Positions 13,327-36,047 of a stretch of 64,000 nt of DNA are shown piece after piece. Source of the DNA: Uruburuella testudinis (GTDB lineage: Bacteria > Pseudomonadota > Gammaproteobacteria > Burkholderiales > Neisseriaceae); NCBI RefSeq assembly GCF_022870865.1, contig NZ_CP091508.1, forward strand, positions 310,001 through 374,000, written 5' to 3'. Below the pieces are notes generated by a model, which was not told where the DNA came from, ran no database searches, and saw only the letters and a list, made by a program, of their open reading frames with translations. Within the stretch, counting starts at the first letter, position 1. Every line of letters begins with the position of its first letter. A program made the translations under genes and the position numbers.

Positions 13327-14294
13327 GTGAAACCACGCCGCACCGCCACATTACGGTATTGCTGAATGAAGCGGTGGATGCGCTGAATATCCGTGACAAC
13401 GGTGTGTATGTTGACGGCACCTTCGGCAGGGGCGGCCATTCGCGGCTGATTTTGTCGAAGCTGGGCAGCGAAGGCCGTTTGGTGGTGTTTGATAAAGACC
13501 CGCAAGCCATTGCCGTAGCCCGTGAGCTGGCTGCCCGAGATTCGCGCGTGAGCGTGGTGCACAACGGTTTTGCCACGTTTCAGACGGCCTTGGATGATTT
13601 GGGCATTGGCAAGATTGACGGCGCTCTGTTTGATTTGGGCATTTCGTCGCCGCAAATTGACGAAGGCGCGCGCGGATTCAGTTTCCGTTTTGATGCGCCG
13701 CTGGATATGCGTATGGATCCGACCCGCGGCCAATCCGCTGCCGAATGGCTGGCGGCGGCTGAAGAGCAGCAGATACACGAGGTGATTAAAAATTATGGTG
13801 AAGAGCGGTTTAGTCGCCAGATTGCGCGCGCCATTGTTTCGCAACGCGAGGCCGCGCCCATTGATACAACCGGCAAGCTGGCGCAGCTGGTGGCGCAAAA
13901 CGTCCGTACTCGCGAGCGCGGACAGGATCCGGCGACGCGGACGTTTCAGGCCGTTCGCATCTTCATCAACCGTGAGCTTGAAGAAGTAAAAGCCGTGCTG
14001 CCGCAAGCGGTGCAGCGTTTGAATACGGGCGGGCGCCTTGCGGTGATTGCCTTTCATTCGCTGGAAGACCGCATCGTGAAGCAGTTTATGAAGCAATATT
14101 CGCAACATGCGCCGCTGCCGAAATGGGCGGCAATACGTGAAGCCGATTTGCCGCAGCCGCCGCTTACCTTAATCGGTAAAGCTGTGAAGCCGTCTGAACA
14201 AGAAGTGCAAGGCAACCCGCGCGCCCGTTCGGCCGTATTGCGGATTGCCGGGCGCACGGGCGGTCAATTTGAAGCATCTGAGCAGGCCGTCTGA
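13323..14294 (+). CDS. rsmH: 16S rRNA (cytosine-1402 N4) methyltransferase RsmH (MraW)
   Basis: Methylates C1402 of 16S rRNA in the decoding centre. The 323-residue product has the SAM loop [10 protein letters not shown], the acidic motif [18 protein letters not shown] and [12 protein letters not shown], and the C-terminal [13 protein letters not shown], all in family order. ATG 13323 overlaps the mraZ stop (ATGA), implying coupling. A DUS sits at the very 3' end, so the stop codon TGA at 14292-14294 is part of the DUS, a common Neisseria economy. Confidence 0.97.
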
Positions 14295-14306
14295 AAAAAT
14301 AAGTGT

Positions 14307-30581: not shown

Positions 30582-31751
30582 ATGGAATTGGTTTACGACG
30601 TAGTAGAGTCTGCCGCAAGCCCTGCGGTAATCAAAGTGATCGGTATCGGCGGCGGCGGCTGCAATGCCATCAACAATATGATCGACAACACCGTGCAAGG
30701 CGTAGAATTTATCAGCGCCAACACCGATGCGCAGGCTTTAGGTAAAAACAATGCCGCCAAGCGCATTCAGCTGGGCGTTAACCTGACCCGCGGTTTGGGT
30801 GCGGGTGCCAACCCCGAAATCGGCCGTGCCGCCGCACAGGAAGACCGTGAAGCCATTGCCGACGCTATCCGCGGCGCCCATATGCTGTTTATCACCACCG
30901 GCATGGGCGGCGGCACCGGCACCGGCGCCGCGCCCGTGATTGCCGAAATCGCCAAAGAGCTGGGCATTCTCACCGTAGCCGTGGTCACGCGCCCCTTCGG
31001 CCATGAAGGCAAACGCATCAGCATCGCCCAAGAAGGCTTGGATCACCTGAAAAGCCAAGTGGATTCGCTGATTGTGATTCCGAACGACAAACTGATGACT
31101 GCTTTAGGTGAAGACGTGACCGTGCGAGAAGCCTTCCGTGCTGCCGACAACGTATTGCGCGATGCCGTAGCCGGTATTTCCGAAGTGGTGACCCGTCCCG
31201 GCTTTATCAACCTTGACTTCGCCGACGTGAAAAACGTGATGAGCATCATGGGCATGGCCATGATGGGCTCTGGTGCGGCACAAGGCATCGACCGTGCCCG
31301 CCTGGCTACCGAACAAGCCATTTCCAGCCCGCTGCTGGATGATGTTACTCTAGACGGCGCACGCGGCGTTTTGGTTAACATCACCACCGCTCCGGGCTGC
31401 CTGAAAATGTCGGAATACCGCGAAATCATGAAAGTGGTAGACGAATACGCCCACCCCGATGCCGAGCGCAAATACGGTACGGCCGAAGATGAAGCGATGG
31501 AAGAAGATGCCATCCGCGTGACCATCATCGCCACCGGTTTGAAAGAAAACCAAAACACCGGCGGCAATAATCTGCGCATGGTCAAACAAGCGCAGGCCAC
31601 CGGCACCGACGACGGCTTTCCGGGTATGGGCGGCGTGCTCCGCCCCAACCGCGAACCGCGCAGCATGAACCTGACCGCCTCAGATTTCTCCAATCAATCG
31701 GTGTTGGACGATTTTGAAATTCCCGCCGTATTGCGCCGCCAGGCAGACTGA
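30582..31751 (+). CDS. ftsZ: Cell division GTPase FtsZ
   Basis: Tubulin-like GTPase forming the Z ring. 389 residues with GIGGGGCNAINNM, the tubulin signature GMGGGTGTGAAPVIAEIAK, the T7 loop region PGFINLDFADVKNVMS, and the conserved C-terminal peptide DDFEIPAVLRRQAD for FtsA/ZipA binding. GAGGAGTAGTT before the ATG is a strong ribosome binding site. A terminator follows 12 bases after the stop, and the DUS array starts in its T-tract. Confidence 0.98.
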   Translation: MELVYDVVESAASPAVIKVIGIGGGGCNAINNMIDNTVQGVEFISANTDAQALGKNNAAKRIQLGVNLTRGLGAGANPEIGRAAAQEDREAIADAIRGAHMLFITTGMGGGTGTGAAPVIAEIAKELGILTVAVVTRPFGHEGKRISIAQEGLDHLKSQVDSLIVIPNDKLMTALGEDVTVREAFRAADNVLRDAVAGISEVVTRPGFINLDFADVKNVMSIMGMAMMGSGAAQGIDRARLATEQAISSPLLDDVTLDGARGVLVNITTAPGCLKMSEYREIMKVVDEYAHPDAERKYGTAEDEAMEEDAIRVTIIATGLKENQNTGGNNLRMVKQAQATGTDDGFPGMGGVLRPNREPRSMNLTASDFSNQSVLDDFEIPAVLRRQAD

Positions 31752-31762
31752 TATCGCGTCTG

Positions 31763-31795
31763 AAAAAAAGCCCGCACAACGTGCGGGCTTTTTTT
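31763..31795 (+). terminator. ftsZ terminator
   Basis: AAAAAAAGCCCGCAC (31763-31777), loop AAC, GTGCGGGCTTTTTTT (31781-31795). A textbook intrinsic terminator usable on both strands. Left of it is a DUS missing one base (GCGTCTGAA at 31757) and right of it the first DUS of the tandem array, so the ancestral arrangement was probably an inverted DUS pair framing the hairpin. Confidence 0.93.
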
Positions 31796-33412
31796 CAGAC
31801 GGCCAACCCATTTCAGACGGCCAACCCATTTCAGACGGCCAACCCATTTCAGACGGCCAACCCATTTCAGACGGCCAACCCATTTCAGACGGCCAACCCA
31901 TTTCAGACGGCCAACCCATTTCAGACGGCCAACCCATTTCAGACGGCCAACCCATTTCAGACGGCCAACCCATTTCAGACGGCCAACCCATTTCAGACGG
32001 CCAACCCATTTCAGACGGCCAACCCATTTCAGACGGCCAACCCATTTCAGACGGCCAACCCATTTCAGACGGCCAACCCATTTCAGACGGCCAACCCATT
32101 TCAGACGGCCAACCCATTTCAGACGGCCAACCCATTTCAGACGGCCAACCCATTTCAGACGGCCAACCCATTTCAGACGGCCAACCCATTTCAGACGGCC
32201 AACCCATTTCAGACGGCCAACCCATTTCAGACGGCCAACCCATTTCAGACGGCCAACCCATTTCAGACGGCCAACCCATTTCAGACGGCCAACCCATTTC
32301 AGACGGCCAACCCATTTCAGACGGCCAACCCATTTCAGACGGCCAACCCATTTCAGACGGCCAACCCATTTCAGACGGCCAACCCATTTCAGACGGCCAA
32401 CCCATTTCAGACGGCCAACCCATTTCAGACGGCCAACCCATTTCAGACGGCCAACCCATTTCAGACGGCCAACCCATTTCAGACGGCCAACCCATTTCAG
32501 ACGGCCAACCCATTTCAGACGGCCAACCCATTTCAGACGGCCAACCCATTTCAGACGGCCAACCCATTTCAGACGGCCAACCCATTTCAGACGGCCAACC
32601 CATTTCAGACGGCCAACCCATTTCAGACGGCCAACCCATTTCAGACGGCCAACCCATTTCAGACGGCCAACCCATTTCAGACGGCCAACCCATTTCAGAC
32701 GGCCAACCCATTTCAGACGGCCAACCCATTTCAGACGGCCAACCCATTTCAGACGGCCAACCCATTTCAGACGGCCAACCCATTTCAGACGGCCAACCCA
32801 TTTCAGACGGCCAACCCATTTCAGACGGCCAACCCATTTCAGACGGCCAACCCATTTCAGACGGCCAACCCATTTCAGACGGCCAACCCATTTCAGACGG
32901 CCAACCCATTTCAGACGGCCAACCCATTTCAGACGGCCAACCCATTTCAGACGGCCAACCCATTTCAGACGGCCAACCCATTTCAGACGGCCAACCCATT
33001 TCAGACGGCCAACCCATTTCAGACGGCCAACCCATTTCAGACGGCCAACCCATTTCAGACGGCCAACCCATTTCAGACGGCCAACCCATTTCAGACGGCC
33101 AACCCATTTCAGACGGCCAACCCATTTCAGACGGCCAACCCATTTCAGACGGCCAACCCATTTCAGACGGCCAACCCATTTCAGACGGCCAACCCATTTC
33201 AGACGGCCAACCCATTTCAGACGGCCAACCCATTTCAGACGGCCAACCCATTTCAGACGGCCAACCCATTTCAGACGGCCAACCCATTTCAGACGGCCAA
33301 CCCATTTCAGACGGCCAACCCATTTCAGACGGCCAACCCATTTCAGACGGCCAACCCATTTCAGACGGCCAGCCCATTTCAGACGGCCAGCCCATTTCAG
33401 ACGGCCAACCCA
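31793..33412. repeat. Tandem array of 90 DUS-containing 18-bp units
   Basis: The unit TTTCAGACGGCCAACCCA is repeated 90 times without interruption (90 x 18 = 1,620 bases). Every unit contains TTCAGACGGC, the complement of the DUS core GCCGTCTGAA, always in the same orientation. On the complementary strand the 12-mer is TGGCCGTCTGAA, one base from the AG-DUS that dominates in this window. By eye, 88 units are identical; units 88 and 89 (starting 33359 and 33377) have AACCCA changed to AGCCCA. A degenerate half-unit follows (33413-33421). The unit is 56% GC. The array fills the whole space between ftsZ and a convergent permease gene. Because 18 is divisible by 3, five of six frames stay open, but no ribosome binding site or codon bias supports coding. 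An assembly effect on copy number cannot be excluded. Confidence 0.97.
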
Positions 33413-33420
33413 ATGCAGAT

Positions 33421-33475
33421 AGCTGAGCCTGCCGAAGCCATTATGTTGACATAAAAGGCTTCGGCAGGCTCAGCT
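33421..33475. terminator. Long inverted repeat between the array and the permease gene
   Basis: A 19-bp perfect stem: 33421-33439 (AGCTGAGCCTGCCGAAGCC) with its complement at 33457-33475 and a 17-base loop. It lies 10 bases past the permease stop on the minus strand, so it probably stops that transcript before it enters the array, although no clear T-run follows. Confidence 0.6.
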
Positions 33476-33485
33476 TGCTCATCGG

Positions 33486-34967
33486 TTAAATGGTATTGTC
33501 GCTGCGTTTCATCAGCAGCAGATACAGAATAAAGCCCAAGGCGCAGCCGATAAACCAATTGAAGTCGGCCAGAGGTTTGATGCCGGCCAAGGTAATGCTC
33601 ACGCCGACCGCCACCGGCGGTATCAGCGCCAGCAATGCTTTGATGTTCCAGCCGCCGCGATACCAGTAAGCACCGTCGGGGCGGGTGCTGTAGAGGGCGT
33701 CGACATCGATTTTTTGCTGGCGGACGATATAGAAATCGGCCAGCAAGATGCCGAACAGCGGCCCGATAAAGGCAGAAAGCATATCCAGAGTATAGTGGAT
33801 GGTTTCCGGAGAGTTAAACAGATTCCAGGGCATGATAAACACCGAGCCGATGGCAGCAATAAAACCGCCGATGCGAAAGCTGATGTGCTGCGGCGCCACA
33901 TTGGCAAAATCGAAGGCGGGCGATACGAAATTGGCCACGATATTGATGCCGATGGTGGCGGTCACAAAAGTAAAGGCACCCAACAGCATCACGCCGACAT
34001 TATCGATGCGGGCTACGGTGTCGATGGGGTCAGTCAGCATTTCGCCAAATACCGGAATGGTGCCGGAAGTAATGATCACAGTCACCAGGGCAAACAGTGT
34101 GAAGTTGATCGGCAACCCCCAGAAATTGCCTTTTTTCACGGCTTTAAAGCTTTTGCCGTAGCGTGAAAAGTCGCCGAAGTTCAACATCGGCCCTGAAAAA
34201 TAAGACACCACCAACGCGATGGCGGTTAGCATCGGCAAAATGGCATCGCTGCCGAAATATTTGACCTCGCCCAGATTCAGGCTGATGTTGCTCAAGCCGG
34301 CGCGCTGCACAATCCAGATGGCCAGCAGCAGCATCACCACATAAACGGCAGGGCCCGCCCAATCGATAAATTTTTTGATGGTATCCATGCCGTGCCAAAA
34401 TACAGCGGCTTGCAATACCCACATAATGCCGAAGCTGAGCCAGCCCAACAGCGACAAGCCCAGCAGGCTGGTTTCCGCCAACCCTTGTGCGGCAGGAAAC
34501 GCCCACAAAATCAGAATATCCAGCGATTTTGAGGCCAGAAAAGTTTGAATGCCGTACCAGGCCACCGCAATCAAACCGCGGATGACCGCCGGCACATTGG
34601 CGCCGAATACCCCGAATGCCATGCGGCAGGCCACCGGATAAGGCACACCGGCCTGCTGGCTGGGTTTGGCGACCAGATTGCATAAAAACTGCACAATCAC
34701 AATGCCGACAATCAGCGATATCAATACCTGCCAGCTGTGCAGGCCGAGGGCAAACAGGCTGCCGGCAAACACATAACCGCCAACACTGTGCACATCAGAC
34801 ATCCAGAAAGCAAAAATGTTATACCACGACCAGTTTTGCCGGGCACCGGAGAGCGGCGCCAAATCATTATTATAAAGTTTATGGCTGTATTCTTCCGATA
34901 CACTATCGGTTTGCCCGGCAGAGGGTGCCATTGCACCGTCTATCACAGAATCGAAGGTTTTTTCCAT
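33486..34967 (-). CDS. NCS1-family nucleobase/hydantoin permease
   Basis: Polytopic transporter of 493 residues with about twelve helices. Family marks are the N-terminal NDLAPLSGARQNWSWYNIFAFWMSDVH, here noted as NDLAPL and WYNIFAFWM, plus FGVFGANVPAVIRGLIAVAWYGIQTF in the third helix region and NFGDFSRYGKS after helix 6. NCS1 carriers import cytosine, allantoin, hydantoins, uracil or thiamine precursors with sodium or protons. The divergent racemase of the hydantoin/allantoin type makes those ureide-type substrates the best guess. ATG at 34967 follows GGGAGCGCTAA on the minus strand. Confidence 0.85.
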   Translation of the reverse strand: MEKTFDSVIDGAMAPSAGQTDSVSEEYSHKLYNNDLAPLSGARQNWSWYNIFAFWMSDVHSVGGYVFAGSLFALGLHSWQVLISLIVGIVIVQFLCNLVAKPSQQAGVPYPVACRMAFGVFGANVPAVIRGLIAVAWYGIQTFLASKSLDILILWAFPAAQGLAETSLLGLSLLGWLSFGIMWVLQAAVFWHGMDTIKKFIDWAGPAVYVVMLLLAIWIVQRAGLSNISLNLGEVKYFGSDAILPMLTAIALVVSYFSGPMLNFGDFSRYGKSFKAVKKGNFWGLPINFTLFALVTVIITSGTIPVFGEMLTDPIDTVARIDNVGVMLLGAFTFVTATIGINIVANFVSPAFDFANVAPQHISFRIGGFIAAIGSVFIMPWNLFNSPETIHYTLDMLSAFIGPLFGILLADFYIVRQQKIDVDALYSTRPDGAYWYRGGWNIKALLALIPPVAVGVSITLAGIKPLADFNWFIGCALGFILYLLLMKRSDNTI

Positions 34968-35321
34968 TTAGCGCTCCCAATTTGACTGCATGGTTAAAAA
35001 ATAATGAGGTGAAAATATCGGGAAATCTGCTGCAATAACCGTTTGCCCGCATCTGTTTGGATGACGGTGCCATTGTGCAAATTTCAATCAATCAGGTTAT
35101 TTCATTGCGTGAAAGTGTGCACCTGTCGAAGAAAATGCTCAATATAATTCAAACACGCTATAAAAAATAACCATAAATTTTTTATAGCCGGAAGATTCAA
35201 GGTTGATTATTTTAAATTAAATTTATTTTAACGCATAAATTGTTGACAATATAATCTATGATTGTTGACAATATGCGCATATTATCTGATGCTGAAACCA
35301 GTTTCACCGAAAGGAAACACC
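34968..35321. other. Divergent control region between permease and racemase genes
   Basis: About 350 bases, strikingly AT-rich from 35140 on, with no gene. It carries the duplicated operator described separately. The permease-side half has no clear promoter by eye. Confidence 0.6.
35239..35274. promoter_or_regulatory. Duplicated operator ATTGTTGACAATAT with an internal -10 box
   Basis: The 14-mer ATTGTTGACAATAT occurs at 35239-35252 and again at 35261-35274, 22 bases apart (two helical turns). Each copy is a near-palindrome ATTGT-TG-ACAAT of the GT..AC kind bound by GntR-family regulators. TATAAT (35250-35255) lies between them, so a bound repressor would block the promoter. The regulator gene is not in the window. 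Confidence 0.6.
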
Positions 35322-36047
35322 ATGCATATCCGCCTGATCAACCCCAATACCTCGGCACACATGACCGAGGCCATGTTTCAAAGCGTTCGTGCTTACGCTG
35401 CGCCCGGCACGGTGCTGTCGGCCGTGACATCGGCGCAGGGGCCGGTGTCGATCGAATCGCATTTTGACGAAGCGGTAAGCGTTATCGGTGTGTGTGATGA
35501 AATTTTGCAGGGCTGCGCTGAACAGGTAGACGCCTATATATTGGCCTGTTTCGGCGATCCGGGCATTTGGGCGGCGCGCGAGCTGACTGATGCGCCGGTG
35601 ATCGGCATTGCTCAAGCCGCTTTCAGCACCGCAGCCATGCTGGCGCCGCGTTTTGCGGTGGTTACCAGCATGCAGCGCACCGTGATTATGGCGCATCACC
35701 TGCTGGCACAATACGGCATGGCATCGTTGTGCTGCCATGTCGGTGCGGTTGATTTACCGGTGCTCGATTTGGATAACGGAGCTGCCGTTGAAGCCATTAT
35801 CCGCCATGCCGTGCAGGCGCGCGATCAGCACGGTGCCGGCGCCATCGTGCTCGGATGTGGCGGCATGTCGCACGCCCGCGCCGAAATCGAAGCGGCTGTG
35901 GAGGTGCCGGTGGTAGACGGGGTGGCGGCGGCGCTGAAGCTGGCGGAAATGCTGGTGATGCTGGGTCTGAAAACCGGCAAACACGGTGATTTGGCCTACC
36001 CGCTGCCGAAGACCTTTACCGGCGGTATGAGCCGGTTTAGTCGCTAG
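35322..36047 (+). CDS. Hydantoin/allantoin racemase family protein (Asp/Glu racemase superfamily)
   Basis: 241 residues from the ATG at 35322, which has AAAGGAAACACC before it. Family marks are IRLINPNTSAHMTE, GPVSIESHFDEA, the first catalytic cysteine in LACFGDPGIWAARE, and the second in VLGCGGMSHARAEIE, with DGVAAALKLAEMLV near the end. Such enzymes racemise 5-substituted hydantoins or allantoin by a two-cysteine mechanism. No hydantoinase or allantoinase is in the window. The stop TAG (36045-36047) is within a CTAG that borders a fragment of the MITE. Confidence 0.85.
   Translation: MHIRLINPNTSAHMTEAMFQSVRAYAAPGTVLSAVTSAQGPVSIESHFDEAVSVIGVCDEILQGCAEQVDAYILACFGDPGIWAARELTDAPVIGIAQAAFSTAAMLAPRFAVVTSMQRTVIMAHHLLAQYGMASLCCHVGAVDLPVLDLDNGAAVEAIIRHAVQARDQHGAGAIVLGCGGMSHARAEIEAAVEVPVVDGVAAALKLAEMLVMLGLKTGKHGDLAYPLPKTFTGGMSRFSR

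What the first reader, a model, noticed from the sequence alone, without database searches (positions are those of the whole stretch)
31793..33412. A 90-copy tandem array of the DNA uptake sequence downstream of ftsZ
Seen: 90 uninterrupted 18-bp units, each with one complete DUS core (TTCAGACGGC), all in one orientation. Known: in Neisseria the DUS is bound by the minor pilin ComP during transformation, occurs some 2,000 times scattered in genomes, and normally stands as singles or inverted pairs, not in tandem. Inference: this locus concentrates as many uptake signals as tens of kilobases of ordinary DNA. It may make fragments carrying the dcw/ftsZ end preferentially taken up, act as a ComP sponge, or be a neutral satellite that borrowed the DUS. 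I know of no described counterpart.
Basis: partly seen in the sequence, partly recalled or inferred. Interest (0 to 1): 0.96.

Follow-up and report, generated by a model that had tools for sequence, protein, structure and literature searches.

The report
Long tandem arrays of uptake signals
This Neisseria-group genome carries six long head-to-tail arrays (90 copies in the largest) of the short DNA tag that these bacteria use to recognise their own DNA, and relatives carry different arrays of the same kind, which offers a natural test of how uptake tags multiply.

Summary
The array is real: 90 uninterrupted 18-bp units at 31793-33412, each with a perfect 10-bp DUS core. It is not unique. The genome (G000, one contig of 2.95 Mb) holds six tandem DUS arrays of 13-90 units, 224 cores in all, each with its own spacer, period 14-18 bp. 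Tandem DUS triples occur in 8 of 46 genus genomes; triples of other DUS-dialect cores in 3 genomes of three other genera.

The array begins inside the right arm of the ftsZ terminator hairpin. In the relative nearest by FtsZ, the contig ends at the same place inside a tandem DUS with another spacer. Most likely it is a young minisatellite, born by local duplication of one DUS arm and grown by slippage or unequal exchange. DUS-biased transformation may explain why DUS units are over-represented among large arrays, but this is inferred. Against a strong uptake effect: papers report that closely spaced DUS/USS add little uptake, three of six arrays carry a minority DUS flank, and an old relative array has decaying cores. 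The 'ftsZ uptake hub' and 'ComP sponge' readings lack support. Nine paper searches found no description of such arrays.

The parts
30582..31751 (+). ftsZ, last gene before the array
   Evidence: Pfam Tubulin and FtsZ_C; ORF 389 aa
31757..31801 (+). ftsZ terminator hairpin, 21-bp stem; left arm ends in a degenerate DUS, right arm runs into the first array core, so the array begins inside the terminator
   Evidence: Fold -35.8 kcal/mol, z -7.96; left arm CGCGTCTGAA is 2 mismatches from the core
31793..33412 (+). 90 x 18-bp tandem DUS array, unit TTTCAGACGGCCAACCCA; units 88 and 89 CAGCCCA
   Evidence: TRF and direct unit count
33421..33475 (.). long hairpin between the array and the convergent gene, a likely terminator for the permease
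   Evidence: Fold -51.3 kcal/mol, z -9.38; role inferred from position
33486..34967 (-). NCS1-type cytosine/purine/allantoin permease, convergent with ftsZ; no DNA match in G043, the relative nearest by FtsZ
   Evidence: Pfam Transp_cyt_pur; DNA search, 6 of 46 genus genomes match including G000, G043 not

Best explanation
A young DUS minisatellite. The downstream arm of the inverted DUS pair at the ftsZ terminator was duplicated in tandem with a few bases of local sequence, then grew to 90 near-identical copies by slippage or unequal exchange. The same process happened independently at other DUS in this genome and in relatives. Inferred, not shown: DUS-biased transformation spreads or retains such arrays, because released DNA that carries them is DNA the cells can take up. 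That would explain why DUS units are over-represented among the large arrays.
For: Six arrays in G000, each with its own spacer, which argues for separate births rather than one copied element; the exact unit here matches (three units, up to 3 mismatches) nowhere else in 83 family genomes. The first core lies in the 3' arm of the ftsZ terminator stem. Of 24 TTCAGACGGC array sites examined, 14 have an exact inverted partner within 70 bp upstream and 2 more one with 1-2 mismatches (L078, L082 and the other-dialect sites were not in this count). In G043 the ftsZ contig ends 78 bp after the stop codon, in the second of two tandem units with another spacer; of the other 28 ftsZ loci fetched (30 of 46 in all), none has tandem cores in the first 400 bp. 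In G043 7 of 28 tandem DUS pairs lie within 30 bp of a contig end. In a 43% sample of G000 (1.26 Mb; TRF, >=85% match, >=5 copies, period 8-60) 5 of 8 arrays carry DUS, while DUS-bearing 18-mers are 1.2% of all 18-mers and 3.1% of roughly non-coding ones. Three genomes of other genera have tandem TTCAGGC[TA]GC cores, and the stretches around them hold that core and no TTCAGACGGC. ComP-family genes are present in G000.
Against: For the uptake part: closely spaced DUS or USS add no measurable uptake in published tests (passages of PMC3388099; PMC7811141). Three of six G000 arrays carry the TG flank found at 70 of 1704 ordinary DUS. In the old G063 array only 12 of 27 units keep a perfect core, so cores are not protected. 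38 of 46 genus genomes show no TTCAGACGGC triple, though 21 of the 46 are drafts in which arrays may be broken and some use another core. For the birth at an inverted pair: 6 of 24 sites (L069, L070, L071, L077, L202, L203) show no DUS-like inverted neighbour at up to 2 mismatches within 70 bp upstream or 90 bp downstream. Three non-DUS arrays of 10.1-30.3 copies exist in the sample.
Confidence: 0.5

Rival explanations
1. Purely neutral minisatellite. Intergenic DUS hairpins are slippage hotspots, so a very common hairpin-forming repeat makes many of the arrays; uptake plays no part.
For: Many arrays sit at inverted pairs or terminators; spacers and periods vary; the TG flank is over-represented among arrays; cores decay in the old array L207; non-DUS tandem repeats, some large, exist in the same genome.
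Against: The unit carries one DUS, not the hairpin. In the 43% sample the non-DUS arrays of >=5 copies and >=85% match are three, all inside stop-to-stop frames of 100 codons or more, two with periods divisible by 3. How many DUS-free terminators exist was not counted.
Confidence: 0.35
2. Uptake hub: the array is selected because it makes fragments carrying the ftsZ end enter competent cells preferentially.
For: 90 perfect cores next to an essential gene; ComP-family genes are present.
Against: Five other arrays lie beside other genes; of 28 other ftsZ loci read, none has tandem cores in the first 400 bp (16 of 46 genomes' ftsZ loci were not fetched); close DUS do not add up in published tests.
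Confidence: 0.06
3. Assembly artefact: a short array inflated by the assembler.
For: No reads were available; tandem repeats are a known assembly hazard (recalled).
Against: Single-contig genomes G000 and G049 and two-contig G029 hold arrays with differing units; the two variant units near the right end give internal structure; in the draft G043 contigs tend to end at tandem DUS.
Confidence: 0.05
4. Decoy or sponge that occupies ComP, or a repeat-coding gene.
For: Many binding sites; frames across the array are open because 18 is a multiple of 3.
Against: Chromosomal DNA does not meet pili before lysis (recalled biology). Other arrays have periods 14, 16, 17 and 19, which do not keep a frame.
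Confidence: 0.03

Closest known systems
DUS and composite DUS (inverted DUS pairs in terminators) of Neisseriaceae
   Same: Same 10-bp core; this array starts at such a pair, with the left arm degenerate
   Different: Head-to-tail units in one orientation, up to 90 copies; the word tandem is absent from the main texts of PMC2397512 and PMC3630211 (only passages seen)
Bacterial minisatellites / VNTR loci
   Same: Short near-identical units, locus-specific; most frequent period 14-19 bp in 28 of 33 clusters
   Different: In the sampled part of this genome 5 of 8 large arrays carry the uptake signal, at independent loci
Molecular drive of uptake sequences (as discussed in PMC2397512 and PMC7811141, passages seen)
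   Same: Biased uptake can spread a motif without benefit to the cell
   Different: The passages concern scattered motifs; here the motif multiplies in place
Pasteurellaceae USS
   Same: Analogous uptake signal discussed under the same drive model
   Different: Tandem USS arrays were not searched for in genomes; two paper searches listed none

Membership tests
DUS (10-bp core TTCAGACGGC / GCCGTCTGAA) | Exact core, abundant in the genome, ComP-family reader present | tested here: met
   90 of 90 units; 1704 further cores in the 43% sample; PF16732 ComP_DUS hits in G000, best E 2.7e-14
DUS (10-bp core TTCAGACGGC / GCCGTCTGAA) | Extended 12-mer of the genome's main dialect (AG-DUS) | tested here: not met
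   Array 12-mer is TGGCCGTCTGAA in 90 of 90; AG flanks 1377 of 1704 elsewhere
DUS (10-bp core TTCAGACGGC / GCCGTCTGAA) | Promotes uptake | not testable with these tools
   Needs transformation or binding assays
Minisatellite / VNTR | Head-to-tail units of about 10-60 bp with high identity | tested here: met
   18 bp x 90, 99% match
Minisatellite / VNTR | Copy number varies between strains | not testable with these tools
   Only one genome per species is held; the species nearest by FtsZ has another unit at the same place, at a contig end
CRISPR array | Repeats separated by unique spacers | tested here: not met
   All spacers identical but for one change in two units

The most novel reading that the evidence does not exclude
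These are selfish uptake satellites: once a DUS is duplicated in tandem, biased transformation spreads longer alleles between cells while unequal recombination between incoming and resident arrays lengthens them, a runaway in-place form of molecular drive that leaves dialect-matched arrays across Neisseriaceae.
Probability: 0.3. Interest if true: 0.88.

Novelty: new variant of a known kind. Interest (0 to 1): 0.72.

Why it matters
Whether uptake sequences spread by selfish molecular drive or by selection was called doubtful in print in 2008 (PMC2397512). Arrays of 3 to 90 perfect signals at many loci are a natural dose series for that question. They can be tested for uptake, for spread between cells and for copy-number change after transformation. 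In one draft genome contigs tend to end at tandem DUS, so such arrays are probably undercounted in drafts.

Tried and rejected
A copied element: rejected, the unit matches at one place in 83 genomes. Phage link: one IMG/VR hit, which by eye looks like a coding repeat in L200; not pursued. Hits of the triple pattern outside Neisseriaceae (30 of 34 stretches): taken as chance or coding repeats, not checked one by one. Recurrent neighbour genes: one search lists nine protein matches between array loci of different genomes, among them purF-like (G049 and G063), potD-like (G000 and G049), EamA-like (G000 and G052) and ftsZ (G000 and G043); apart from ftsZ these names are mine, by eye, from no family search. 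A rough hand estimate, with an assumed 500 DUS-pair sites per genome, expects about 0.6 orthologous coincidences, so nothing is claimed. Helical phasing of binding sites: not supported, periods run from 14 to 19 bp in 28 of 33 clusters (three clusters are pieces of L207, five have longer periods). Strand bias relative to replication: considered, not tested (origin not located). Core versus spacer protection: young arrays vary too little to tell; in L207 the core varies. Tandem USS in Pasteurellaceae genomes: not tested. The >=5-copy threshold of the tandem-repeat control was chosen after the first sample. One search read minus-strand ftsZ loci in the wrong orientation and picked ftsA in many rows; re-read all 30 fetched loci and replaces both.

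Full report
OBSERVATION. The array is exactly where it was reported. TRF gives 31793-33412, period 18, 90.0 copies, 99% match. Reading the units directly, 88 are TTTCAGACGGCCAACCCA and units 88 and 89 carry one change in the spacer; all 90 cores are perfect and in the same orientation. The core is expected 0.09 times in a shuffled window and occurs 178 times, 88 of them outside the array. The window is G000:C1:310001-374000, in a genome of one contig of 2,949,123 bases.

ANATOMY. The array lies between convergent genes: ftsZ on the left and an NCS1-type permease on the right. The ftsZ terminator is a 21-bp stem (31757-31801, -35.8 kcal/mol, z -7.96). Its right arm runs into the first DUS core and its left arm carries a degenerate DUS, two mismatches from the core. 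So the array grew from the right arm of a DUS-flanked terminator. Inverted neighbours are ordinary here: outside arrays, of 403 neighbouring cores within 30 bp, 309 are in the order GCCGTCTGAA...TTCAGACGGC, 75 in the opposite inverted order and 19 direct. A second long hairpin (33421-33475) stands between the array and the permease. Open frames across the array follow from 18 being a multiple of 3; other arrays have periods that keep no frame.

NOT ALONE. The unit is found only here among 83 family genomes (three units, up to 3 mismatches). A general pattern (three TTCAGACGGC cores in one orientation, 3-20 bp apart) matches 8 of 83 genomes, all in this genus, that is 8 of 46 genus genomes. G000 itself has six arrays, and every match of the pattern is accounted for (193 forward, 19 reverse): 201192 (47 cores, 16 bp), 341794 (90, 18 bp, this finding), 496949 (16, 17 bp), 1412888 on the minus strand (21, 17 bp), 2343614 (37, 14 bp) and 2361172 (13, 16 bp), in all 224 cores. 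Each has its own spacer. In G049 eight sites of 3-67 cores were fetched and TRF saw one more repeat in a sampled stretch (L144); 9 forward and 12 reverse matches were not placed. G029 has six sites of 3-16 cores. G012, G013, G018, G036 and G052 have one or two small ones of 3-7 cores. Of genus genomes with one or two contigs, 5 of 25 match; of drafts, 3 of 21 (contig numbers).

RELATIVES AND DIALECTS. The relative nearest by FtsZ, G043 (95% identity), is a draft of about 110 contigs. Its ftsZ contig ends 78 bp after the stop codon, after the same kind of terminator, in the second of two tandem units whose spacer differs, TTCAGACGGCCTTACACA. It has no triple, but 28 tandem pairs, 7 of which lie within 30 bp of a contig end; two of the seven overlap in sequence, so six loci. 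That is what short reads would give at long arrays, though it does not prove their length. Of the seven, only the ftsZ one matches a G000 array locus (compared with all six array loci, the window and 20 further stretches). The permease has no DNA match in G043. Of the 30 ftsZ loci fetched (30 of 46), only G000 and G043 have tandem cores within 400 bp after the stop; 15 of the other 28 show the usual inverted order within 50 bp. Among cores of other dialects (recalled), TTCAGGCNGC triples occur in 3 of 83 genomes: G063, G081 and G082, in three other genera; the G082 one mixes two cores. The stretches fetched around them hold TTCAGGCTGC or TTCAGGCAGC and no TTCAGACGGC. G063 has an old, degenerate array of 26.4 copies whose left neighbour looks like a terminator by eye. 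A search that also admits TTCAGACAGG and TTCAGACGAC cores matches 13 of 83 genomes; the five added ones (G014, G019, G020, G030, G037) have one to three matches each, mixed in dialect except for one pure TTCAGACAGG triple in G019.

IS THE DUS CONTENT MORE THAN CHANCE? I ran TRF on 60 stretches plus the window, 1.26 Mb or 43% of G000. With >=85% match, >=5 copies and period 8-60 there are eight arrays: five with DUS (13.8, 16.1, 21.2, 47.4 and 90 copies) and three without (15 bp x 30.3, 19 bp x 11.9, 21 bp x 10.1). The three lie wholly inside stop-to-stop frames of 100 codons or more; two have periods divisible by 3 and are probably coding, the 19-bp one is uncertain. The sixth DUS array lies outside the sample. 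Repeats of lower identity or fewer copies listed carry no DUS, apart from a 3.3-copy one in G049. DUS-bearing 18-mers make up 1.22% of all 18-mers and 3.1% of those outside ORFs of 150 codons, arrays excluded. Leaving out this window, because it was chosen for its array, 4 of 7 arrays at 3.1% each has a chance of 3e-5; leaving out the two probably coding ones and allowing 10%, 4 of 5 has 5e-4. The mask is rough and the copy threshold was set after the first sample, so I take this as a strong hint, not a proof. In 200 kb each of G049 and G029 no array of >=5 copies was seen (TRF, at least 3 copies listed).

EVIDENCE AGAINST AN UPTAKE EFFECT. First, passages of PMC3388099 say that DUS 5 nt apart transformed no better than one, while two dispersed DUS roughly doubled transformation and three added no more; they also cite an older competition study with a linear effect of DUS number, which points the other way. 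[quoted passage not shown] Second, three of six G000 arrays have the TG flank, seen at 70 of 1704 other DUS, and only two have the usual AG flank, seen at 1377 of 1704; three or more TG of six has a chance of 0.0013. A passage of PMC3630211 says that the flank position in which AT and AG differ matters less than an inner one; the position changed in TG is not addressed there. Third, in the old array L207, 12 of 27 units keep a perfect core, so cores are not guarded. Fourth, 38 of 46 genus genomes show no such triple, with the caveat on drafts and other cores.

MECHANISM. Shown: position at a DUS-flanked terminator, local spacers, near-identity of units, six separate arrays. Inferred: birth by duplication of one DUS arm, growth by slippage or unequal exchange, recent because the units hardly differ. 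Inferred and uncertain: biased transformation as the reason why DUS units are over-represented. ComP-family matches (three, best E 2.7e-14, two of them in neighbouring ORFs) are present in G000, so the reader protein is probably there. I give this whole account 0.5 and the purely neutral one 0.35. The checking of this report changed counts, not these odds.

KNOWN OR NEW. Nine paper searches (listings and abstract starts seen) and passages of seven papers (PMC7371117, PMC3388099, PMC2346458, PMC3091790, PMC2397512, PMC3630211, PMC7811141) showed no description of tandem DUS arrays; the word tandem is absent from the main texts of PMC2397512 and PMC3630211. The library lacks most subscription journals and supplements were not read. 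I file it as a new variant of a known kind: minisatellites made of the uptake signal.

Noticed in passing
G019:C1:831661-831703, G020:C1:151053-151095, G014:C1:623956-624013, G037:C38:25652-25703: Tandem clusters that mix two DUS-like cores (TTCAGACAGG and TTCAGACGGC); in G019 and G020 the spacer letters are shared, as if one duplicate had changed dialect.
   Followed up: no
G060 and G062 (another genus of the family): The control pattern, the triple read backwards (CGGCAGACTT), gives 19+12 and 5+20 matches, so these genomes hold tandem repeats of an unrelated motif.
   Followed up: no
L207 (G063:C114), 1846-2291: Old 26-copy array of the TTCAGGCTGC core with many decayed cores: a possible picture of how such arrays age.
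   Followed up: partly
L074 (G049) and L209 (G063): Tandem DUS of two cores beside a purF-like gene (named by eye) in two genera; may be chance.
   Followed up: partly
L237 (G000:C1:962001-982000), 14072-14298: 19-bp tandem repeat of 11.9 copies without DUS, the largest non-DUS array in the sample whose period is not a multiple of 3.
   Followed up: no
L247, 12565-12615 and L127, 5673-5723 (G000): Small tandem repeats of 3.6 and 4.2 copies that do not contain a DUS but end within about 30 bp of one.
   Followed up: no
window 33486-36047: NCS1 permease and Asp/Glu/hydantoin racemase genes between ftsZ and a topoisomerase IV subunit A gene; the permease DNA matches 6 of 46 genus genomes including G000, at 65-72% in the other five.
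   Followed up: partly
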